Source: a virus. From it: a stretch of 29,002 bases of DNA. Within the stretch, counting starts at the first letter, position 1; every line of letters begins with the position of its first letter. The DNA is taken from positions 1 through 29,002 of IMG/VR virus record IMGVR_UViG_3300017782_000139; one strand, 5' to 3'. A program made the position numbers and the translations under genes. Below are positions 1-10,301 of the stretch, one piece after another. The notes under the pieces were generated by a model. That model ran no database searches and was not told the DNA's origin. It was given only the letters and a program-made list of their open reading frames with translations.

Positions 1-588
1 AAGCCTGCTGGGACAACATCTCTGGCATTAGGAACTTCATCTGGTATTCATGCATGGCATTCAGATTATTATACGCGTAGGATCAGAGTTGGTAAAAACG
101 AGTCTATGTATAAATACTTAGCAGCTAATCATCCTGAGTTAATTGAAGATGAGTTTTTTAGACCTCATGATACTGCAGTAATTAGCATACCGCAGAAAGC
201 ACCTAAAGGTTCTATACTTAGAACTGAGTCACCATTTGATTTACTTGAACGTATAAAGAAAGTAGCTACAGAGTGGGTTAAGCCTGGTCACAGAAAAGGA
301 TCTAACACTCACAATGTTTCAGCTACTGTTAGCTTAAAGCAAGAAGAATGGGATCAAGCAGGTAAATGGATGTGGAAAAACAGAGATCATTATAATGGAT
401 TATCTGTATTGCCTTATGACGGTGGTACATATACTCAAGCTCCATTTGAAGATATAAGCAAAGTAAAATACGATATGGCTATGAAACATCTTAAAGATGT
501 TGATCTTAGTAAAATTGTAGAAACAGAAGATGAAACAGATCTTGCGGGAGAGTTAGCTTGTGCAGGTGATAATTGTGAAATCAAATGA
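1..588 (+). CDS. nrdJ: Adenosylcobalamin-dependent (class II) ribonucleotide reductase, C-terminal part
   Basis: Partial gene: the frame is open from base 1 and the first 35 codons precede the first in-frame ATG, so the true start lies outside the window. The visible 195 residues read K-P-A-G-T-T-S-L near the edge, then L-G-T-S-S-G-I-H-A-W-H, a conserved block of monomeric B12-dependent ribonucleoside-triphosphate reductases. The extreme C-terminus is L-A-C-A-G-D-N-C-E-I-K, a C-x4-C redox pair matching the swinging-tail cysteines that re-reduce the active site in this family. Known role: reduction of ribonucleotides to deoxyribonucleotides in the cytoplasm without oxygen, using cobalamin. In a phage this supplies dNTPs for replication. 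The sequence style resembles Bacteroidota homologues (from memory). It is transcribed convergently to the virion genes and overlaps the next gene by four bases. The activity and substrate sites upstream cannot be seen. Confidence 0.95.
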   Translation, partial: KPAGTTSLALGTSSGIHAWHSDYYTRRIRVGKNESMYKYLAANHPELIEDEFFRPHDTAVISIPQKAPKGSILRTESPFDLLERIKKVATEWVKPGHRKGSNTHNVSATVSLKQEEWDQAGKWMWKNRDHYNGLSVLPYDGGTYTQAPFEDISKVKYDMAMKHLKDVDLSKIVETEDETDLAGELACAGDNCEIK

Positions 589-740
589 AACGACTAGCTT
601 TAATAGGTGGTATTGGCATGATGACTATTGCTGGTACTAATATGATTTGGCATAAACAAAAGCTAGATTTTAATCCAAATACACTTGCAATAGCAAGCGG
701 CGCTTTTATAGTGTCAATAGGTATAACTATTAAAATATGA
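585..740 (+). CDS. Small two-helix membrane protein (51 aa)
   Basis: An ATG at 585 overlaps the nrdJ stop codon (ATGA), the usual sign of translational coupling, and opens a 51-codon frame. The protein starts M-K-R and has two hydrophobic stretches, about residues 4-22 (L-A-L-I-G-G-I-G-M-M-T-I-A-G) and 33-50 (L-A-I-A-S-G-A-F-I-V-S-I-G-I-T-I), joined by a polar loop containing W-H-K-Q-K. This predicts a hairpin inner-membrane protein. I do not recognise the family. Size and topology would suit a holin or a small membrane effector, but the position beside nucleotide metabolism genes argues for neither. There is no Shine-Dalgarno sequence upstream, as elsewhere in this genome. A real gene is likely because of the overlap, the tidy topology and the terminator shortly after it; the function is unknown. 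Confidence 0.65.
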   Translation: MKRLALIGGIGMMTIAGTNMIWHKQKLDFNPNTLAIASGAFIVSIGITIKI

Positions 741-743
741 ACT

Positions 744-785
744 ATGTGTGACGGATGTCCGGGCGGATTTTGCCCATGGTGTTAA
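744..785 (+). CDS. Candidate 13-residue four-cysteine micropeptide
   Basis: Three bases after the membrane-protein stop, an ATG opens a frame reading MCDGCPGGFCPWC and then TAA. It has two CxxC pairs (C2/C5 and C10/C13); the second, C-P-W-C, resembles the redox-active CPYC/CGPC motifs of glutaredoxin and thioredoxin families. Four cysteines in thirteen residues is unusual for such an AT-rich genome. The stop lies five bases before the stem of the terminator, so the peptide would be the last gene of the nrdJ unit. It could be a metal- or thiol-binding micropeptide, a leader-like peptide, or chance: the stretch is locally GC-rich and such short frames are common. No ribosome-binding site is visible, which is uninformative here. 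Expression is unproven. Confidence 0.35.
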   Translation: MCDGCPGGFCPWC

Positions 786-790
786 ATATA

Positions 791-823
791 AAAAGGGGAA
801 GTCGTAATGACCTCCCCTTTTTT
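791..823. terminator. Bidirectional intrinsic terminator between convergent units
   Basis: The arms 791-803 (AAAAGGGGAAGTC) and 809-821 (GACCTCCCCTTTT) pair over 13 bp with one A-C mismatch around the loop GTAAT. A run of Ts follows on the plus strand (818-823). On the minus strand the same hairpin, now with a G-U wobble at that position, is followed by a U-rich stretch. It lies between the plus-strand nrdJ unit and the end of the giant minus-strand gene, so it probably stops transcription from both sides. Confidence 0.9.
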
Positions 824-866
824 GGTTACAGGAACTTTGGGTATGGTGCCCAGTTTTTTCTTGTTC

Positions 867-3800
867 CTAGTTATCTATAGTAACTCCTTTTTTTCTTCTC
901 CAAGTTTCAACTTCTTTTTTTACTTCAGTTGTATTACTACTTGATTTGTCTTTAGGATTTATTTGCCACTCTGGCCATCCAGCTATCATAGCTATTGATT
1001 GCCACCATTCTGTTTCTTCATCCATAGCTGCTTCTATATTTTGCATTTTCAACAATAGTCTATCTAATGGCACATTAGTAACTGCAGAAATAACTTTAGT
1101 TGTGGCCTCATATCCTGGGTTATCTAAACCAAAATCTTCCATAGCTTTTTTTCTACGTTTTTTACTATCCATTTGCCAAGCAGCAGCTCTAAACCTAGAT
1201 ATTTTAGAACTTATAGGCGGAGAAAATTGTAGTAACTTATATATAGAGTCAACATATTCAGGTCTGTCTCTACCTGATCTTTCGTATATATCTAATAAAA
1301 AGTTTTTAGCTACTGCTACTGCAGCTCCTCCCATTCCTAATCCTCTTAGTATAGAATCTGCCATACCGTTAGCAACATCAATAGCTTTTTCAACTTCTTT
1401 TTCATCATCATCTTCGCTATTAAAAGCTAAAGCAAATACAGCTTGTTGAAGAGTATTAAATATTAAATTTTGTACTACTCCATAATATATTATTTTACTA
1501 ACATTAGATTTGTTATCACCTCTACCTGCTGCTAAATCTTGAAAAGCTCTTTTTTGCATACGAGCATACTGCATGGGAGTGTTAGCATAAGCTAGTATCA
1601 AACGACCAGCATCACTAGACTGTTGTTGTGATATTCTCATTGGATCAGAGGACTGCTGAGATTCCTCAGCTTTTTCTCTAAACTCTAACATAGCCTGAGA
1701 CTCTGCTTCTTGCTGAGTTATATCAGGATTGTTCTTCATTAAATTAGCTACTCTGTTACGGAAGTAAGTAGCACCACCTAAAGCTATAGCAAAACTATCA
1801 GCAAATTGTGTAGGTGCATATCCTTTAGATAATATATAAGATATAGCTGCTTGGGCTTTGTTGCCACTAGTGTTAGCAGCGTTAGCTATTTCATTTTCAG
1901 ATATATTAATTCTCATCCCATTTCTACGATCAACAAGAAAATCAGAGTTCATTAACATCATAAAATCAGACCAATATTGTTTTTGATTAGCAAATGCTTT
2001 ACCAGCTTTATAAGGATTATTAAAGCTCCAATTTATAAAGTTAGCACTAGATATAGTTTGAAGTATAGCAGATCTTATGTTTAAAAACATGACAACACCG
2101 TTAGCGTTGTTTATGTAATCAAGTATTCTATTACTTAATCTATTTCCTGTAGCTAGCCTATTTTTACCTTGCTTCATTCTTTCAAGAACATTCTTTAAAG
2201 CTTCTACATATTTAGTTCCAAATGCTGCTTCTAGTTTATTCATGTTTTCTTGTGAAAATATTAAATCAACATTAGCCTGCCACTCTTCTAAATATTTACG
2301 TCTAACATTTTTATTTACACCATCAATTAAATCTGTTGTTATAGTTCCAGCTAGCCAACTTTCACTAGGAGCATTGTATTCAAAAGTTTTATTCAACTTC
2401 ATTATTTCATCACCAAAAGTCTTTAATGTTTGATTAGCTTCTACTATATCTAATAATTCTTTAGTATCTCCCTTAGATAGACCAGGAATACTCATACCTT
2501 GCTTATTCCATATGTATACTCTTACAGCCTGCTCATTACTAAATCCAGATTTGTTTGTTTTCTTTAAATCTTTAGGAACATCTAAATCTTCTTTTAATTT
2601 CTTAAAATCTTCAAACATATTCTTTCTGAAAGTAGATAAGTTATTAGCTGCTCTAGTGTAAGGATCCATTAGTCTTTCTTTAAACCATTTCATAGCTGAA
2701 TTTCCTTTAGCACCTTTAGGTAATATAGGATATATAAGACCTAAAAAATCTTCAGCAGAGTAAGGTATAAAGAATTTAAATCTACCTTTTTTAGCACCTA
2801 CTATTTTACCTTTAGCTTCTGAATATCTAGCTTCTGATCTTATACCTGTGGCTTCTTGAATTATATTATTAAAATCTTCGTTTATGTCTGTCTCTAAACT
2901 CATTTTAGCTTGTTGAACTTTAGACTTGACATCTAATACAGACATAGCATCTCTTACTGCTTTAACATTTTGATAAGCGTCGTCGGCAAAATAAAAATCA
3001 TTGTAACCTTCAGCAGCTTTTTCCACAACCCATTTAGCTTTAGCAGCACCTGTTGATTGACCTAACCCTGTTATGTTAGATAAAGGTATATTTAAACCTA
3101 AGCTGTCTAAAAATTCTTTAATAGGTCCTTGAGATTCAGGAGCTCTAGCAGTTAACACAAACACATCTTCAGTTCCTCTAGCTGCTTGTATTTTTTTAGC
3201 TATATCTAACAGTGGACCTGGCTTACCATCTCTAACTATATTAAAGTCTGAAAAATCAAAAGTATAACCGTCAATTAACATTTGAGCGCCGTTACTCGCA
3301 AACTCTTCCGCGTTCATTTCAGTTTTTTGACCTTCTTTAATAGCTATTACTTTACTATTACTTCTAGCTAAAGTGTCATCAAAATCAAATATTCTAATCT
3401 TTTTAACAGGTGCATTTAATTTTCTAGCATTATTAAGAGCTGCGTCTACTGTAGCTGCATAACCTATTATGTCTTCATTAGTTTCCATAGAAGCTTTAAC
3501 AGGTATAGATACTTTACCTTCTGGTCTAGCTAATTCATAATCGTAGCCAGATAATTTTCCAAATATTTCAACAGTATAAATATCTGTTTCCCAACCTAGG
3601 TCAGCGCCTAGTTTTTCTAACATTGTATTATAAAGTTTAACCCTACTTTTGTCTTTAGCTAAAGCGCTAAACTCTACAGTTTCAACGTTAGGATTATTTT
3701 TTATAAGATTAGTCAAAGAGTTGTAAACAATACCCATAGTTTTAAAAGCATTACCTGATCCTGTTATACCTTGTTTATTATCTTGGTCAAACTCTATAAC

Positions 3801-6800
3801 ATAAGCTGTATCTTCAATATCTACTGGGTAAAAATCTATATTATAATTTTTATTACCAACTTTAAATTTAGCACTCATGTTACCAGCGGCATCTGCTTTA
3901 AAATCTAAGTCTTTGTAAGACTCCATAGAAGCTTTTACAACATTATTACTTAAATTAGTTATATTGGCAGCCTTGGCTTGCTTTACACTGTTCCATAATT
4001 TAGCAGGAGCTATAGACTCTTTTACTACTTTACCTGTTTGTATATTAAATAATTCTGTAACTTCACCACCAATAGTATACTCATTAAACCATCTAGTGAG
4101 AGGAGTATCACCATATTGATATGTAAGTGGCATAGAAGCTTTAAAGAAGTTGCCAAAGTTATCATCAAAACCTTTTGATATAACACCCACTTGATAACTG
4201 TCTTTTAATTTACTTAAGCTAATCTCTTTGTTTTGGCCAAATATAGCATCAGCTATCATTAAGTTCATTACAGATGAAGGTATACCATGCTCATACTCAA
4301 ATAACTTACCTACGTTTTTGCTATTATAACCCTTAATATCTATGTTTGTTGGTACATAAGTTAATCTACCAGCAGCTCTCATAGGTCCTTTCATGTTATC
4401 ATTAAAGGCTTTCATTAACATTGCTGCATTTTCTTTAGTAGCAGTTTTACCTAACATTTTGTCTACAGTTTTGTAGTAAGTTGTAACAAAGTTCCAAGCT
4501 CTATCAGAGTAATCATTTCTGCCGTTTATTTCTTGCTGAGACATATTATTTGTAACCATATCCATAGTTGTTTTTTGTGGATATGATTTAGGACCTACAA
4601 CTTCTCTAGTAACACCATCAACTTCTAGCGTCCAAGTAGTAACACCATCTTTTGTTTTAGACTTGTAACTAGTTATACCAAAGTTTTCTTCTAAAAGTTC
4701 TTTGTTAAAAACCTCAACGTGACCTCCGCCAACTCTGTATTTCCCTTCGTATTTACCTTCTTTTTGATATGTTATCTTGCTTTCTTTTATCTTGTAACCT
4801 TTTAATTCTTCTAATGCTTTAATAGCGTCTTCAGCTTCTTTTTTAGTATCGTATATACCAGAAGCTTCATTACCATAAATCATATTTCTATTTAATCCAC
4901 CGTCTTCAAAACCACCTTTAAACAATATAAAGTCAATGGCTAAATCTAATTTAGTTTTACCTTGTTTTTTATAGGCTTTAACTAGCTGTGGTATTGATAC
5001 ATTTATAAAAGCCTTTTGAGTATCTCTTCCATCAGCATCATTTAAATCCCCAACATTAATACTATTTCCCTCTGCATCTTTTAAATTCCAGAACTTGTTT
5101 AAAGTAGAATTTTCATCTGCATTTAAACTACCATCTATATAAGACTTTAAAGGAAAATCAGTTATACCTTTGTATTCTGATACTTGTTTTCCAAATTTGT
5201 TTATTAATGGAGTATATAAACTTACTAACTTAGTTATTTCAGGTTTACTTAAATTATCACCATATATACCTTCTACAATACTTCTAACTTGTTTTTTAGT
5301 TTCTTTAATATCTTTAGCAAATCCAACGTTATATCCTGTATCAAGTAAATTACTAATTAACTTATCTTTGTCTTCCATGTATATTCCAAAGTTATTAGCT
5401 GTTGGATTTTTCATTTCAGAAAACTGTCTTTCTACTTCTTTAGATAATTTAGACTGAACACCTCTATCTATAGATGACGCCATTAATTGAACAACCTCAT
5501 CAGCTACTAAATAGTTTAACTCAGGGTTTCTACTAGTAATCTTATCTATAGTGTCTTGCTCGGTCATTACTTGCATGGTACCGTCAAAACCGTATGTCTT
5601 AGCTAGGTTTTTAATTAACGCTTCATCTCTACCTCTTTTCTTAAAAAAATCTAAATAAGCTTGATCACTAGGCATCAGTCTTGAGTAAAGATTAGGTCCT
5701 GACTTTGGATTAGAATATACTAATCTACCTGTACCTTCATATCTTTTTATATCTTCTGGACTTAAATTTTTACGATCTAGTGAAGTAAATATTTTATCTT
5801 TAGAAAGTCTTTCCATAGCTACTAAATCAGCTATAGAAAGTTTATTTACCATAGCGTTTTTAATATCTAATAGTCTTTGATCATAACCAGGTGTTCCTTT
5901 ACCTAATGATTGTTTTATATTATCATATAATATAGACTCGTACTGAGCTGCAATACCGTTTTTAAAATCTTTAATTATTCTTGAATAATCTATTTGAGCT
6001 TGATTGTATTCAGCTCTAGTATAGTTATCTGGGTTTTTAATAATATCTCTAACGTCTTTTAAACTAACTAAAACATCTGCTTGGCCTTTCTTTTTTCTAA
6101 CATAATCTAGCTTTGGCAATTTAGTACCTAATACTAGTTCATTAGCTCTAAGTATAGCATTGTACATATCAGAGCCTGGTAAAACGCCTGACTCTCTAGT
6201 AAAGTTTAATTCTTCTGGTATGTTAACTTCTTCTGCCGCTACTGGATCAAACTGTCTTCTACCTTCTACTTGAGCATCTATGTCTACTGTATTTTTTGGA
6301 GCAGCACCTTTAGCCATTTGTTTTCTAGCATCACCAACTTTAAATGGCGCATAGTTACCCATGTAAGCAGCTATAGGATTTTTAGCAGTTAATTGAGTTT
6401 CGGGATTCATTGCTAGCAAGTGATTTAAAAAAGGACCTGTTATAGTAGTCATTGCTAATTCTGGATCGAAGCCTGATAATTGCATCACCTGATCTATCCA
6501 GTCTCTACTAATATCTTCAAACAACTGTGCGCCTTCAGGAGTTAAAGTACCTCCATCTCTTAACTTAACACCATCGACTAACATGTATTTTTCGTAGTCG
6601 TCTCTAGTCATTGTTCTAAATGTCTTATCAAATATATCTCTATATTTTATATTTCTATCTTCTTGTTCTTTAGAGGTTTTTGGCTTTTGTTTTTTTGGAC
6701 CTTTACTTACTATACTATTAATAGTAGACAATACTGTTGGCGCTAAAGCTTCTGAAGATCTAGCATCTGCAATGTCTTGCTCTGTTAAAGTACCAGTACC

Positions 6801-9800
6801 TATTTTCTTAGCTAAGCCAACTAAAAACGAAACAGCGTCAGTTTCTCCTTTAAAATTAACTTCAAAACCTTTTTCTTTTGTAGTATTATTAGACATAAAA
6901 CCAAATAAACTAGCTAGCTTTTTATTTTTCTTTTGGTTAAAATCTATATTACCTTGATCTACCTGTTCTAAAAATTCTATTACAAACTCTTCTGCTTGAA
7001 TTTTAGTAGTTGCACCGACACTCATTTTTTGTCTTATAACATTTAGCATATCAATATCTTCTTTTCCTAGATAATCTGATATAGCTTGTGCTAATTGACT
7101 AAAATCTCCATCTCCAGTTTGCAATATTTCCTTAAATACAGCATGGCCAGGTTCATGTATACCTACAGAAGTTCTATCATTTTTAACAGAGTTTTCTAAT
7201 ATAACAAATTGCTGGCCGTTTATATTATCTAAACCGTTTAGCGTTCCATCTTTTATAGCTTGTATTTGAGCAGCTTTATCTTGTTCTGATAGGTTTTCAG
7301 CGTTTTTAACTAGATCAATTGCCTCAGCATTTGTTTTAGCAATTCGTATATCAACACCATAACTATTCTGAGCAGAAGCTACTTTATCTAATATAACTTG
7401 TTCTGTGTAAATGTCATAAGCAACATCTTGAATTTCTTTAATTTCTGGAGTAAAATCTGGATTTTCATTTTTCTTTATCCTTATCTTTTCTTTAGCATCA
7501 GCCATTATAGAATTATATCTATCAGGATCTGTTTGCTCTAGTAATTTAAAAGTATTTTTAAAAGCTTTATTGTTTCTAAAAAGATCTCTTGCATATTGTG
7601 TAGCATCAAACTTTTCTTTTAAGTCATTTAATAATTCTTGTTTCTTATCTTTGCTAAGTCCTGGATCATTATAAATGTCTTGTGCTTGCTTTTTTAAAGC
7701 CTCTTGCTCTTGAGTAGCTCTATTAAATCTTTTCCACCCATCTTTACCCATGTTATTTTCCATCTCACTAACCATACCTTTTAATATGTCTTGAGATTTT
7801 GTTTCTAAATCTGCTTTCTTTTTTCTAAGTATTTCTTTAGAAGATTCACTTATTAAATCGTTTTTAAGAAGTTTGTTTATACTAGAAACATCTTTTATAA
7901 CATTATTATACTCATCATATTTTTTAGGATCACTAAACTTTTGCAAAGCCATACCATACATTACTGGAGATACTGACATACCAAAACCAAACATACCACC
8001 AGAAAACATAGCATGATCAACATTGTCTAGCAAGCCTACGCCGTCTAACATGTTTTGAGTCATCTGAGTTAATCCTTCACCTACAGCTTCTGATAAAGGA
8101 TCTTGTATTAAAATTCTTTTACCTTGCTCTTTCCAAGTTTGTTTTATTGCTTGATTAAAGTTTAACAAGCTTTCACCACCCGCAGCTTTTAAATAGCTTT
8201 TACCACGCTTAAGTATTTGAACTGTAGTTAATGTTTCAAACACTGCTTCTGCAGCGCCATAACCTGCCGATACACCAAACTTAACAAGTTCATTTCTTTC
8301 AAAACCAGATCTTAAATCTTCTTGATCCATTTCCATATACTTCTCTCCAGCAGCATAAGCACCTATTATATATGGTGATGCGGTACCACCTGAAGCTATT
8401 ATAGTAGCAAGTATAGGTAATTGTTGTCCCATTTCTTGAGTCATAAACCTACCAAAAGCAGCTGGTCCACTTGTAAAAGCACGATCAAAACTTACGTCTT
8501 TAGCATACTGATCTCTGCTCATGTTCTTCCAGTCAGTAAATCTAGTAGCTGTTTCATCTAAGAAACCACCAATTGATTTAGATACAACATTTTCTTCTTC
8601 TAAAGTTTTATCACCTGATATTTCTTCAGCTAAATAAGTTCCACCTTGAATAACTTTACCTACTCCATAAGCTAAACCAGCTCCTATAGAAGCAAATCCT
8701 GAACCTACATTATATTGAAACTTACTCCAAGTATCATAATCTCTACGCAATAAATCAAACTGTGCGTCTATGTTTTTTAAGTTGTCTGTTTCAGCGTCAA
8801 TTCTAGATTGTCTATCTTGCAGTCTAGTGTACTTATCTCTTAAATTCTTAGATGATGTAAGGTATTTATCAAAAACCTCTTTAGAAACAGTTTTACCATT
8901 TCTAAGTTTTATAGCTTCTTGACCTTCTTCAATTATAAATTGCTTGCTATTATCAGAGTATATTTTTTCAAAGTCTTCTACTATAACTCTATCACCTTCT
9001 GAAGCTGACGAATTATAATCTGCTAATTCTACTTCTTGAAGCTTTTGTAGTCCAGCAGCTTTTTTAAATGATCGATCTTCTTCAACGGCTTTATAAGCTT
9101 TAAGAATACCTTGCATTTCATCATCATTAGCTTCTAAGTAATCAGTCCACTTATCATCTTGAAGTTTGTTGTATTTTTTGTTGTATATTATTTTTCTAGC
9201 AGCATCTTTTATCTCAGCTTCAGTAGCAGCTGGCAGTTGATCGTCTATAGATCTTTTTTTATTTTCTACTGCTCTAGCGTCATTGAGCATTTTTTCAGCG
9301 GCATTTAATTCTTTTTCGTATGGATTTACAACAACTTGTTTAGTTTGCTGAACCATAAAATCACCCATAGCTGTTGGACCTCCTCCATATATTGCTACGT
9401 CTTCAGTGTAAGGTTCAAATAAATCTATACGTTCAGATTCTTTTTCTATTTCAGCAGCTTCAGCATCTGTAACATTTACAATACTATTTATTATTTTAGT
9501 TTCTTCTGATATTTTTTTGTCTGCTTCATCATATAGTTTTGCATCATAACCGTGAGTGTCTACAAATTTTATAATATCACTCTTCATTGCAGTTACAGGA
9601 TCACGCTTTTCACCTAAGGTTATAGTTTTTGGGCCTATTAATTGGGTGTCACCATTAGGAGCTGTCATTTTTATACCAACATCATTACCTCCAAAACCAA
9701 GAATATCTCCTCTTGTTTCTACTTCAAAACTATAATCAGGGTACATAGTTTTTAAAGCGTCTGCTGTAGCGTCATAGTCATCAGATTTAAACGTCTCTGT

Positions 9801-10301
9801 AGTACTTTCATTGTCTAGCCAGTCGTGTATACCTCTACCGCTAGATGTTTCAGGATTTTTACTATTAGCTAATAGCTGTCTATCATTTCTTTTTTGCTCT
9901 GCTAAAGCTAGATCTTTTAATCTTTGCTCGTTAAGTTGTTTTGTTTTAGTTTCTATTACATTTTCATCTACAACAAAGTTACTATACAGTTCTTTATCAG
10001 ATTCACTTACATCTAAATTATTTATTTGCTCATCATAATTTAAATTAATGTTTTGAACTTCTGAATCGTAGTCCGATAAAACATTGTCCGATGTTAAGTC
10101 CGTATTCATAGACTTTAGTGCTGCTTCGTCTTCTTGCGCTACAGTGTTCGCAGCCTCCTCTGTAGCTTGTTCTTTTTTTGTTATAGAAGGGTTCTCTGCT
10201 AAGTATTCTTCTACATCTTCAAAACCTTTTTCTACAGCTCTACTATAAATTTGATCGTAAGTAAATTCAAGACCATTGTATAAGTATATATCCTCGTTCA
10301 T
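867..10301 (-). CDS. Giant polyvalent/internal virion protein (3144 aa) with zincin and HAD phosphatase domains
   Basis: The last gene of the virion module encodes 3144 residues in one unbroken frame. In order I see: a short N-terminal module (L-Y-N-G-L-E-F-T-Y-D-Q-I); long charged coiled coil to about 520; hydrophobic, Gly/Ala-rich segments near 527-555, 620-655 and 760-785, suited to membrane insertion; a metallopeptidase motif H1049-E-P-G-H1053 with an acidic pair near E1104; a long unassigned middle; a GNAT-like or large-polyvalent-protein stretch at about 2165-2240 (Q-G-I-T-G-S-G-N-A-F, then R-V-K-L-Y); a HAD-type phosphatase at about 2300-2460 with D2306-F-D-D-T, T2384 in V-L-T-A-R and D2440-D2441; and a helical C-terminal third with a hydrophobic patch near 2934-2957. 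Phage polyvalent proteins are known to combine such domains and to be packaged and injected with DNA. The place after two ejection-protein-like genes, as with T7 gp16, supports that role. Actual substrates are unknown. Confidence 0.88.
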   Translation of the reverse strand: MNEDIYLYNGLEFTYDQIYSRAVEKGFEDVEEYLAENPSITKKEQATEEAANTVAQEDEAALKSMNTDLTSDNVLSDYDSEVQNINLNYDEQINNLDVSESDKELYSNFVVDENVIETKTKQLNEQRLKDLALAEQKRNDRQLLANSKNPETSSGRGIHDWLDNESTTETFKSDDYDATADALKTMYPDYSFEVETRGDILGFGGNDVGIKMTAPNGDTQLIGPKTITLGEKRDPVTAMKSDIIKFVDTHGYDAKLYDEADKKISEETKIINSIVNVTDAEAAEIEKESERIDLFEPYTEDVAIYGGGPTAMGDFMVQQTKQVVVNPYEKELNAAEKMLNDARAVENKKRSIDDQLPAATEAEIKDAARKIIYNKKYNKLQDDKWTDYLEANDDEMQGILKAYKAVEEDRSFKKAAGLQKLQEVELADYNSSASEGDRVIVEDFEKIYSDNSKQFIIEEGQEAIKLRNGKTVSKEVFDKYLTSSKNLRDKYTRLQDRQSRIDAETDNLKNIDAQFDLLRRDYDTWSKFQYNVGSGFASIGAGLAYGVGKVIQGGTYLAEEISGDKTLEEENVVSKSIGGFLDETATRFTDWKNMSRDQYAKDVSFDRAFTSGPAAFGRFMTQEMGQQLPILATIIASGGTASPYIIGAYAAGEKYMEMDQEDLRSGFERNELVKFGVSAGYGAAEAVFETLTTVQILKRGKSYLKAAGGESLLNFNQAIKQTWKEQGKRILIQDPLSEAVGEGLTQMTQNMLDGVGLLDNVDHAMFSGGMFGFGMSVSPVMYGMALQKFSDPKKYDEYNNVIKDVSSINKLLKNDLISESSKEILRKKKADLETKSQDILKGMVSEMENNMGKDGWKRFNRATQEQEALKKQAQDIYNDPGLSKDKKQELLNDLKEKFDATQYARDLFRNNKAFKNTFKLLEQTDPDRYNSIMADAKEKIRIKKNENPDFTPEIKEIQDVAYDIYTEQVILDKVASAQNSYGVDIRIAKTNAEAIDLVKNAENLSEQDKAAQIQAIKDGTLNGLDNINGQQFVILENSVKNDRTSVGIHEPGHAVFKEILQTGDGDFSQLAQAISDYLGKEDIDMLNVIRQKMSVGATTKIQAEEFVIEFLEQVDQGNIDFNQKKNKKLASLFGFMSNNTTKEKGFEVNFKGETDAVSFLVGLAKKIGTGTLTEQDIADARSSEALAPTVLSTINSIVSKGPKKQKPKTSKEQEDRNIKYRDIFDKTFRTMTRDDYEKYMLVDGVKLRDGGTLTPEGAQLFEDISRDWIDQVMQLSGFDPELAMTTITGPFLNHLLAMNPETQLTAKNPIAAYMGNYAPFKVGDARKQMAKGAAPKNTVDIDAQVEGRRQFDPVAAEEVNIPEELNFTRESGVLPGSDMYNAILRANELVLGTKLPKLDYVRKKKGQADVLVSLKDVRDIIKNPDNYTRAEYNQAQIDYSRIIKDFKNGIAAQYESILYDNIKQSLGKGTPGYDQRLLDIKNAMVNKLSIADLVAMERLSKDKIFTSLDRKNLSPEDIKRYEGTGRLVYSNPKSGPNLYSRLMPSDQAYLDFFKKRGRDEALIKNLAKTYGFDGTMQVMTEQDTIDKITSRNPELNYLVADEVVQLMASSIDRGVQSKLSKEVERQFSEMKNPTANNFGIYMEDKDKLISNLLDTGYNVGFAKDIKETKKQVRSIVEGIYGDNLSKPEITKLVSLYTPLINKFGKQVSEYKGITDFPLKSYIDGSLNADENSTLNKFWNLKDAEGNSINVGDLNDADGRDTQKAFINVSIPQLVKAYKKQGKTKLDLAIDFILFKGGFEDGGLNRNMIYGNEASGIYDTKKEAEDAIKALEELKGYKIKESKITYQKEGKYEGKYRVGGGHVEVFNKELLEENFGITSYKSKTKDGVTTWTLEVDGVTREVVGPKSYPQKTTMDMVTNNMSQQEINGRNDYSDRAWNFVTTYYKTVDKMLGKTATKENAAMLMKAFNDNMKGPMRAAGRLTYVPTNIDIKGYNSKNVGKLFEYEHGIPSSVMNLMIADAIFGQNKEISLSKLKDSYQVGVISKGFDDNFGNFFKASMPLTYQYGDTPLTRWFNEYTIGGEVTELFNIQTGKVVKESIAPAKLWNSVKQAKAANITNLSNNVVKASMESYKDLDFKADAAGNMSAKFKVGNKNYNIDFYPVDIEDTAYVIEFDQDNKQGITGSGNAFKTMGIVYNSLTNLIKNNPNVETVEFSALAKDKSRVKLYNTMLEKLGADLGWETDIYTVEIFGKLSGYDYELARPEGKVSIPVKASMETNEDIIGYAATVDAALNNARKLNAPVKKIRIFDFDDTLARSNSKVIAIKEGQKTEMNAEEFASNGAQMLIDGYTFDFSDFNIVRDGKPGPLLDIAKKIQAARGTEDVFVLTARAPESQGPIKEFLDSLGLNIPLSNITGLGQSTGAAKAKWVVEKAAEGYNDFYFADDAYQNVKAVRDAMSVLDVKSKVQQAKMSLETDINEDFNNIIQEATGIRSEARYSEAKGKIVGAKKGRFKFFIPYSAEDFLGLIYPILPKGAKGNSAMKWFKERLMDPYTRAANNLSTFRKNMFEDFKKLKEDLDVPKDLKKTNKSGFSNEQAVRVYIWNKQGMSIPGLSKGDTKELLDIVEANQTLKTFGDEIMKLNKTFEYNAPSESWLAGTITTDLIDGVNKNVRRKYLEEWQANVDLIFSQENMNKLEAAFGTKYVEALKNVLERMKQGKNRLATGNRLSNRILDYINNANGVVMFLNIRSAILQTISSANFINWSFNNPYKAGKAFANQKQYWSDFMMLMNSDFLVDRRNGMRINISENEIANAANTSGNKAQAAISYILSKGYAPTQFADSFAIALGGATYFRNRVANLMKNNPDITQQEAESQAMLEFREKAEESQQSSDPMRISQQQSSDAGRLILAYANTPMQYARMQKRAFQDLAAGRGDNKSNVSKIIYYGVVQNLIFNTLQQAVFALAFNSEDDDEKEVEKAIDVANGMADSILRGLGMGGAAVAVAKNFLLDIYERSGRDRPEYVDSIYKLLQFSPPISSKISRFRAAAWQMDSKKRRKKAMEDFGLDNPGYEATTKVISAVTNVPLDRLLLKMQNIEAAMDEETEWWQSIAMIAGWPEWQINPKDKSSSNTTEVKKEVETWRRKKGVTIDN

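What the first reader, a model, noticed from the sequence alone, without database searches (positions are those of the whole stretch)
744..785. Thirteen-residue four-cysteine reading frame at the end of the ribonucleotide reductase unit
The peptide MCDGCPGGFCPWC has two CxxC pairs and sits between a membrane microprotein and the terminator. Ribonucleotide reductases need a dithiol reductant, and the nrdJ product ends in a C-x4-C tail, so a redox or metal-binding micropeptide encoded in the same unit is an attractive idea. Standard gene callers would miss it. Its stop lies five bases from the terminator stem, so a terminating ribosome could also interfere with hairpin formation. A chance frame in a locally GC-rich stretch cannot be excluded.
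Basis: partly seen in the sequence, partly recalled or inferred. Interest (0 to 1): 0.62.

Follow-up and report, generated by a model that had tools for sequence, protein, structure and literature searches.

The report
Four-cysteine mini-gene of marine phages
A 13-amino-acid reading frame that normal software would ignore is a real gene, kept in many marine phages with four cysteines that almost never change, and it probably makes a tiny metal-binding (or thiol) peptide whose job is unknown.

Summary
The 13-codon frame at 744-785 (MCDGCPGGFCPWC) is exactly as described, and it is not chance. Relatives fetched blind to it, by the neighbouring nrdJ, carry an 11-16-residue four-cysteine ORF in the same slot in 53 of 70 cases: 27 different peptides, 39 DNA versions, all four Cys kept while their codons swap TGT/TGC (dN/dS 0.33). 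The opposite strand gives 1 such ORF per 445 kb. Similar micro-genes occur in at least three other settings: after a thioredoxin-like gene in other marine phages (65 of 80 loci, 0 on the opposite strand), upstream of the terminase in pelagiphage-like contigs, and after tail-fibre genes with a perfect AGGAGG ribosome site (14 of 14). They are at chance level in 85,000 prokaryote genomes for the pattern tested, and no family library matched.

Its specific links fail: 17 of 70 nrdJ loci lack the peptide, pelagiphage-type carriers show no detectable reductase, and in nine loci a tRNA separates it from the terminator. Four fixed thiols with loose spacing fit a minimal metal-tetrathiolate peptide best (inferred). 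There is no expression or biochemical evidence.

The parts
744..785 (+). 13-codon gene for the four-cysteine micropeptide MCDGCPGGFCPWC
585..740 (+). 51-aa hydrophobic, probably membrane protein; conserved upstream neighbour in many but not all carriers
   Evidence: no PHROG or Pfam match
1..588 (+). 3' part of nrdJ, ribonucleotide reductase closest to monomeric adenosylcobalamin-dependent class II (RTPR), with C-x4-C tail
   Evidence: PHROG 367; full-length relative hits TIGR02505 below its cut-off and PDB 1l1l
790..822 (+). intrinsic terminator hairpin with A/T flanks (likely works in both directions)
   Evidence: hairpin kept with different sequences in loci with and without the peptide
824..867 (.). 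nearly invariant element GGTTACAGGAACTTTGGGTATGGTGCCCAG...GTTCC at the junction of the two convergent units
   Evidence: no Rfam family at gathering score

Best explanation
The ORF is a real, translated micro-gene, one of a family of 11-19-residue tetracysteine peptides carried as small accessory genes by several groups of marine phages. Shown by sequence: a conserved start, stop and four cysteines with synonymous drift, in several unrelated operon settings. Inferred: the four thiolates wrap one metal ion (Zn2+ most likely; Cu+ or an Fe-S cluster possible) in a minimal M(Cys)4 site, CP[I/L/V/F/Y]C-turn-C-x(1-3)-C. The peptide would then act as a mini-metallothionein or zinc-knuckle, buffering, delivering or stripping metal during infection, perhaps while bound to a partner protein. 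Probability that it is a translated gene under selection: about 0.95. Probability that metal-thiolate binding is its working chemistry: about 0.5.
For: Selection on the peptide: the unbiased nrdJ set has 53 of 70 loci, 27 peptides, 39 DNA versions, Cys invariant with TGT/TGC swaps in 7 of 8 columns, dN/dS 0.33 overall and about 1 on non-Cys codons. Strand control 53 versus 1 (nrdJ set) and 68 versus 0 (Trx-like set). In the terminase-upstream group 11 of 13 codon columns vary in codon and only one amino-acid position changes (the search pattern fixed Cys and some Gly but not E, Y, R and the last G). Translation signals: AGGAGG 8 nt before ATG in 14 of 14 tail-fibre-group loci, with TAATG overlap with the next gene in those checked, while the gene upstream varies. 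All 51 listed short hits of the first broad pattern lie before the same element; the other 29 listed hits are N-termini of larger proteins. Metal site: always four Cys, but the second pair varies (CxC, CxxC, CxxxC) and so does the spacer. That suits flexible tetrathiolate ligation better than a fixed dithiol active site. Chemical precedent: a free CPVC-type tetrapeptide of the Rad50 hook already forms Zn(peptide)2 with log K12 14.9 and a 14-mer 19.2, the Pro-hydrophobic spacer being stabilising (PMC5093744).
Against: No expression, proteomic or metal-binding data. Twelve residues are too few for a fold prediction or a significant profile match. Two adjacent CxxC motifs, one often CPYC/CPFC, also fit a thiol-redox role. 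The neighbours in two groups (nrdJ, thioredoxin-like protein) are redox-related. Homology between the groups cannot be shown at this length; they may be convergent.
Confidence: 0.5

Rival explanations
1. Thiol-redox micropeptide: the CPxC pair shuttles electrons to the phage ribonucleotide reductase or another dithiol enzyme, standing in for a glutaredoxin or for a detached RNR cysteine-rich tail.
For: It sits in the nrdJ unit; the window-type genomes tested show no glutaredoxin or thioredoxin by Pfam; in another group it follows a PF00085 thioredoxin-like gene; CPYC/CPFC resemble glutaredoxin active sites; class II RNRs are known whose Cys-rich electron-relay domain is a separate gene, nrdJb (PMC5704485).
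Against: 17 of 70 nrdJ loci lack it; no RNR found in pelagiphage-type carriers, though contigs are partial; four rather than two Cys are invariant and the second pair's spacing is loose; nrdJ already has its own Cys pair, and a viral monomeric NrdJ works with host thioredoxin (PMC6459318).
Confidence: 0.2
2. Host-takeover or counter-defence peptide: it binds a specific host protein, probably at a zinc or cysteine site, and the cysteines serve that interface rather than free metal handling.
For: Accessory distribution (53/70, 65/80), shifting position among neighbouring genes, and conserved extra residues within groups such as MCEYCGG.
Against: No partner known; the only features shared across groups are cysteines plus Gly/Pro turns, so a common protein target is not implied.
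Confidence: 0.2
3. Regulatory ORF: ribosomes ending on it affect the adjacent terminator, or it is a cysteine-sensing leader.
For: The stop lies 5 nt from the hairpin in the window.
Against: A tRNA gene lies between in nine loci; no co-directional gene follows in the window; in other groups it is internal to operons; the amino acids, not just start and stop, are conserved.
Confidence: 0.03
4. Chance ORF, DNA-level conservation, stop read-through tail of the upstream gene, or shadow of an overlapping signal peptide.
For: In part of the thioredoxin-linked group it overlaps the next gene's signal peptide out of frame, and much of CCGGGCGGATTTTGCCCATGG is identical between window-type variants.
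Against: Synonymous drift; strand controls; all three frames relative to the upstream gene occur (21/17/11); the peptide persists where the overlapping frame is closed (L203, L249, L280, L290).
Confidence: 0.02

Closest known systems
Metallothioneins (small Cys-rich metal-binding proteins)
   Same: Very Cys-rich, thiolates the only strictly kept residues
   Different: From general knowledge metallothioneins are longer and bind several metals; here 11-19 residues and four Cys; no family match for the longer variants
Rad50 zinc hook CxxC (PMC5093744)
   Same: Pro-hydrophobic CxxC; isolated peptides of 4-14 residues bind Zn extremely tightly
   Different: The hook is the apex of a coiled coil and uses two chains; here both Cys pairs are in one free peptide
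Glutaredoxin / thioredoxin
   Same: CPYC/CPFC-type dithiol motif
   Different: No thioredoxin fold; four Cys, variable second pair
Cys-rich C-terminal domain of class II RNR and NrdJb (PMC5704485)
   Same: Cys-rich Zn-binding element linked to an RNR, sometimes encoded separately
   Different: That domain has 150-220 residues and six Cys; the micropeptide has 11-19 residues, four Cys, and occurs away from class II RNR

Membership tests
Protein-coding gene | Conserved frame with excess synonymous change | tested here: met
   dN/dS 0.33 in two length classes; Cys codons drift TGT/TGC; 11 of 13 codon columns vary with one amino-acid change in the terminase-upstream group
Protein-coding gene | Translation initiation signals | tested here: met
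   AGGAGG plus 8 nt in 14 of 14 tail-fibre-group loci; the window group has no clear ribosome site, only a short A/T-rich gap after the upstream stop
Protein-coding gene | Detected translation product | not testable with these tools
   No ribosome profiling or peptidomics available
Glutaredoxin/thioredoxin | Thioredoxin-fold domain of about 80-100 residues | tested here: not met
   The peptide has 11-19 residues
Glutaredoxin/thioredoxin | Dithiol-reductant activity | not testable with these tools
   Needs a biochemical assay
RNR cysteine-rich domain / NrdJb | 150-220 residues ending in six conserved Cys, linked to class II RNR | tested here: not met
   Size and Cys number differ; found beside a class I-type RNR and where no RNR is seen
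Metallothionein | Binds d10 metal ions through Cys thiolates | not testable with these tools
   Inferred from four invariant Cys only
Metallothionein | Sequence match to a curated family | tested here: inconclusive
   No Pfam or PHROG match for three 21-22-aa variants, but the test has little power at this length
Leader/attenuator peptide | Lies upstream of the gene it controls with a conditional terminator between | tested here: not met
   In the window only a terminator and a convergent gene follow; a tRNA intervenes in nine loci

The most novel reading that the evidence does not exclude
Several unrelated groups of ocean phages carry a gene class unseen by annotation: free-standing 11-19-residue tetrathiolate peptides, among the smallest metal-binding 'proteins' encoded as independent genes, made at infection to control metal or thiol chemistry of the host.
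Probability: 0.4. Interest if true: 0.85.

Novelty: new variant of a known kind. Interest (0 to 1): 0.7.

Why it matters
Conserved genes this short are very rarely demonstrated, and standard gene callers and family libraries do not look at this size. The family gives a test case for functional proteins near the lower size limit, a simple set of peptides (dozens of natural variants, cheap to synthesise) for measuring metal or redox chemistry, and a reminder that marine phage genomes hold selected genes of 11-19 codons between annotated ones.

Tried and rejected
Cellular origin: the GTDB scan with the 12-mer Gly/TAA pattern gave five scattered hits, about what I estimate for chance. Isolated relatives (Maribacter phage Panino, elemoF, Cellulophaga phi38:1 and phi19:3, Tenacibaculum Gundel_1, MW202828, Pelagibacter HTVC033P/103P/104P/115P, Roseobacter CRP-3/CRP-345, Microcystis Mel-JY01) have no matching short peptide; the two pattern hits lack the family's form. 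Thioredoxin and glutaredoxin were sought in the phages: only the thioredoxin-like protein of the second group was found. Rfam gave only sub-threshold hits near the hairpin. PDB and family searches with longer variants gave nothing. Structure prediction was not run: the peptide is below the 30-residue limit. CPACKAICIFC in L494/L495 belongs to a long open frame and CPTCGPACDC in L497 to a longer protein, so both were discarded; L496 turned out to be a genuine extra member, MENCPLCGGYCGAC. Literature searches found no description of such peptides; the Fremin 2022 phage small-gene paper is not held, so its catalogue could not be checked.

Full report
OBSERVATION. The frame at 744-785 is exactly as reported: ATG TGT GAC GGA TGT CCG GGC GGA TTT TGC CCA TGG TGT TAA, MCDGCPGGFCPWC. 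Upstream are the 3' end of nrdJ (1-588, tail C-x4-C) and a 51-aa hydrophobic ORF (585-740). Downstream is a hairpin with T-run (stem 790-822, -17.2 kcal/mol), then a short element (824-867) and the convergent 3144-aa ORF (867-10301, minus strand). Terminase and portal place the phage among podovirus-like phages of marine Bacteroidota: portal 50% identical to MW202828, 44% to Maribacter phage Panino, 41% to Flavobacterium elemo phages.

IS IT CHANCE? No dinucleotide shuffle of the slot (0 of 20,000), of window 1-900 (0 of 300) or of the whole window (0 of 20) gives an ORF of this form. The stronger test is comparative. I fetched 80 relatives by the nrdJ C-terminus, without reference to the ORF. 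In 70 the downstream element could be found. In 53 of these a four-Cys ORF of 11-16 residues lies between nrdJ and the element, usually as the last ORF before the terminator. There are 39 distinct DNA versions and 27 distinct peptides: MCDGCPGGFCPWC, MCENCPGGFCPWC, MCPLCLGGICEYCNS, MCGLCLGGICEYCNS, MCPYCNGYCGSC, MCELCEGLCQGC, MCPFCNGYCSC and others. All four Cys are kept in all, while their codons switch between TGT and TGC in 7 of 8 columns. Pooled dN/dS is 0.33 in both length classes and about 1 on the non-Cys codons, so the cysteines carry the constraint. Counting every ATG-ORF of at most 20 residues with at least four Cys, these loci give 53 on the gene strand and 1 on the other. Pairwise values are pooled and not corrected for relatedness.

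OTHER SETTINGS. A broad pattern (MC-x2-C-xGGx-C-x2-C) in IMG/VR returned 83 contigs, 80 listed. The 51 listed short hits all stand just before the same element; the 29 others are starts of proteins over 50 residues. A second pattern (12-mers ending in TAA) found the same slot plus new settings.

Setting 2: other marine phages that share parts of the giant protein and lysis region. The peptide usually lies within a few bases of the stop of a PF00085 thioredoxin-like gene with a putative signal peptide. Fetching 80 loci by that thioredoxin-like protein, again blind to the peptide, gave four-Cys ORFs in 65 on the gene strand and 0 on the other, plus one more just outside the fetched flank (L496). 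New forms appeared: MCPFCPICICK, MCGIPNCPFCCGC, MENCPLCGGYCGVC, MTNEKINPCPLCGGICGIC. In some of these genomes the micro-gene overlaps the next gene's signal peptide out of frame, but where that frame is closed (L203, L249, L280, L290) the peptide remains with synonymous changes.

Setting 3: after tail-fibre genes in contigs whose neighbouring protein matches Pelagibacter phage HTVC115P. Of the relatives fetched by the next gene, 14 of 14 with an intact upstream stretch have a four-Cys peptide (MCEYCGGGCGGC, MCEYCNGECGQGC...) with AGGAGG 8 nt before the ATG, and the stop (TAATG) overlaps the next start where checked. The preceding gene differs between loci.

Setting 4: MCEYCGG[S/N/D]CGGCRG in operons of small basic genes upstream of a terminase 71% identical to Pelagibacter phage HTVC033P. 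Nine DNA versions vary at 11 of 13 codons and change one amino-acid position. The search pattern fixed the Cys and some Gly residues, not E, Y, R or the last G. Here the peptide is rare: 5 of 80 loci fetched by the neighbouring gene.

The same kind of pattern in 84,980 prokaryote genomes gave five scattered hits, about chance by my estimate. Thirteen isolated phages had no matching peptide. So far the family is known to me only from metagenomic phage contigs.

WHAT IT IS NOT. Chance, DNA-level conservation and stop read-through are excluded (all three frames relative to the upstream gene occur: 21, 17, 11). A terminator-ribosome device is very unlikely: a tRNA-Ala gene lies between peptide and terminator in nine loci, and the other settings are inside operons. 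A dedicated reductase partner is not supported. Seventeen nrdJ loci lack the gene entirely, without remnants, though they keep the hairpin. In setting 2 the reductase is a class I-type alpha subunit on the opposite strand (and the L234 arrangement), and all 19 large genomes tested have it, with or without the peptide found nearby. In settings 3 and 4 no reductase was found in 20 partial contigs. None of this excludes a redox role.

HOW IT MAY WORK. Shown: four cysteines are the conserved content, the first pair is nearly always CxxC, often CP-hydrophobic/aromatic-C, and the second pair and spacer vary (CxC, CxxC, CxxxC). Inferred: a dithiol active site would need two Cys at fixed spacing, whereas a single tetrathiolate metal ion needs four at loose spacing. 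Chemistry allows it: the four-residue CxxC peptide of the Rad50 hook alone forms a Zn complex with log K12 14.9 and a 14-mer 19.2, the Pro-hydrophobic spacer being stabilising (PMC5093744). I therefore favour a mini-metallothionein or zinc-knuckle peptide (about 0.5), with a redox peptide (0.2) and a host-protein inhibitor (0.2) as live rivals. The accessory distribution and shifting position point to a conditional advantage rather than a core step.

KNOWN OR NEW. No Pfam, PHROG or PDB match was found for the longer variants and no paper in the library describes such peptides. The nearest things differ in defining features: metallothioneins are longer, thioredoxins and glutaredoxins need a fold, and the RNR Cys-rich domain has 150-220 residues and six Cys (PMC5704485). 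Phage small genes as a class are known, so I rate this a new variant of a known kind, at an extreme size and with unknown function. Whether the four settings share one ancestor cannot be decided from 12 residues.

LIMITS. No expression data; contigs are partial and hosts inferred; near-identical contigs inflate raw counts, so distinct DNA versions are the safer number; the bacterial-genome scan covered only one spacing class and one stop codon.

Noticed in passing
window 824-867: Nearly invariant element GGTTACAGGAACTTTGGGTATGGTGCCCAG...GTTCC (small hairpin inside GGAAC/GTTCC) at the junction of convergent units, kept in most of the fetched phage contigs with or without the peptide; no Rfam family at threshold. 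Function unknown.
   Followed up: partly
L012, L013, L014, L018, L042, L043, L049, L052, L058: A tRNA-Ala(TGC) gene is inserted between the micropeptide and the terminator.
   Followed up: yes
L173:6058-6465 and relatives L314-L393: Phage thioredoxin-like protein (PF00085) with a putative signal peptide and only one Cys in its motif (WAKFNEANCF), usually next to the micropeptide gene.
   Followed up: partly
L171, L173, L188, L252: Micropeptide frame overlaps out of frame with the signal-peptide coding start of the next gene (e.g. KLCVLFVMGIVGFANAQ): two short coding frames sharing the same DNA.
   Followed up: partly
L094, L096, L106, L120 and similar: Phage proteins of 51-62 residues with the same start motif (MCEICEGGGCSVCFKTEG...), G+C about 0.44, a different group; possibly a longer relative or a convergent Zn motif.
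   Followed up: no
window 867-10301 (-): 3144-aa ORF next to virion genes with no PHROG match; its C-terminal part is similar in the thioredoxin-linked group, where it runs toward the lysis genes.
   Followed up: no
L015, L022 downstream of nrdJ: Extra 234-aa ORF (MANIKWANYSW...), resembling a glycosidase/concanavalin-like protein by eye, inserted between nrdJ and the membrane microprotein in some phages.
   Followed up: no
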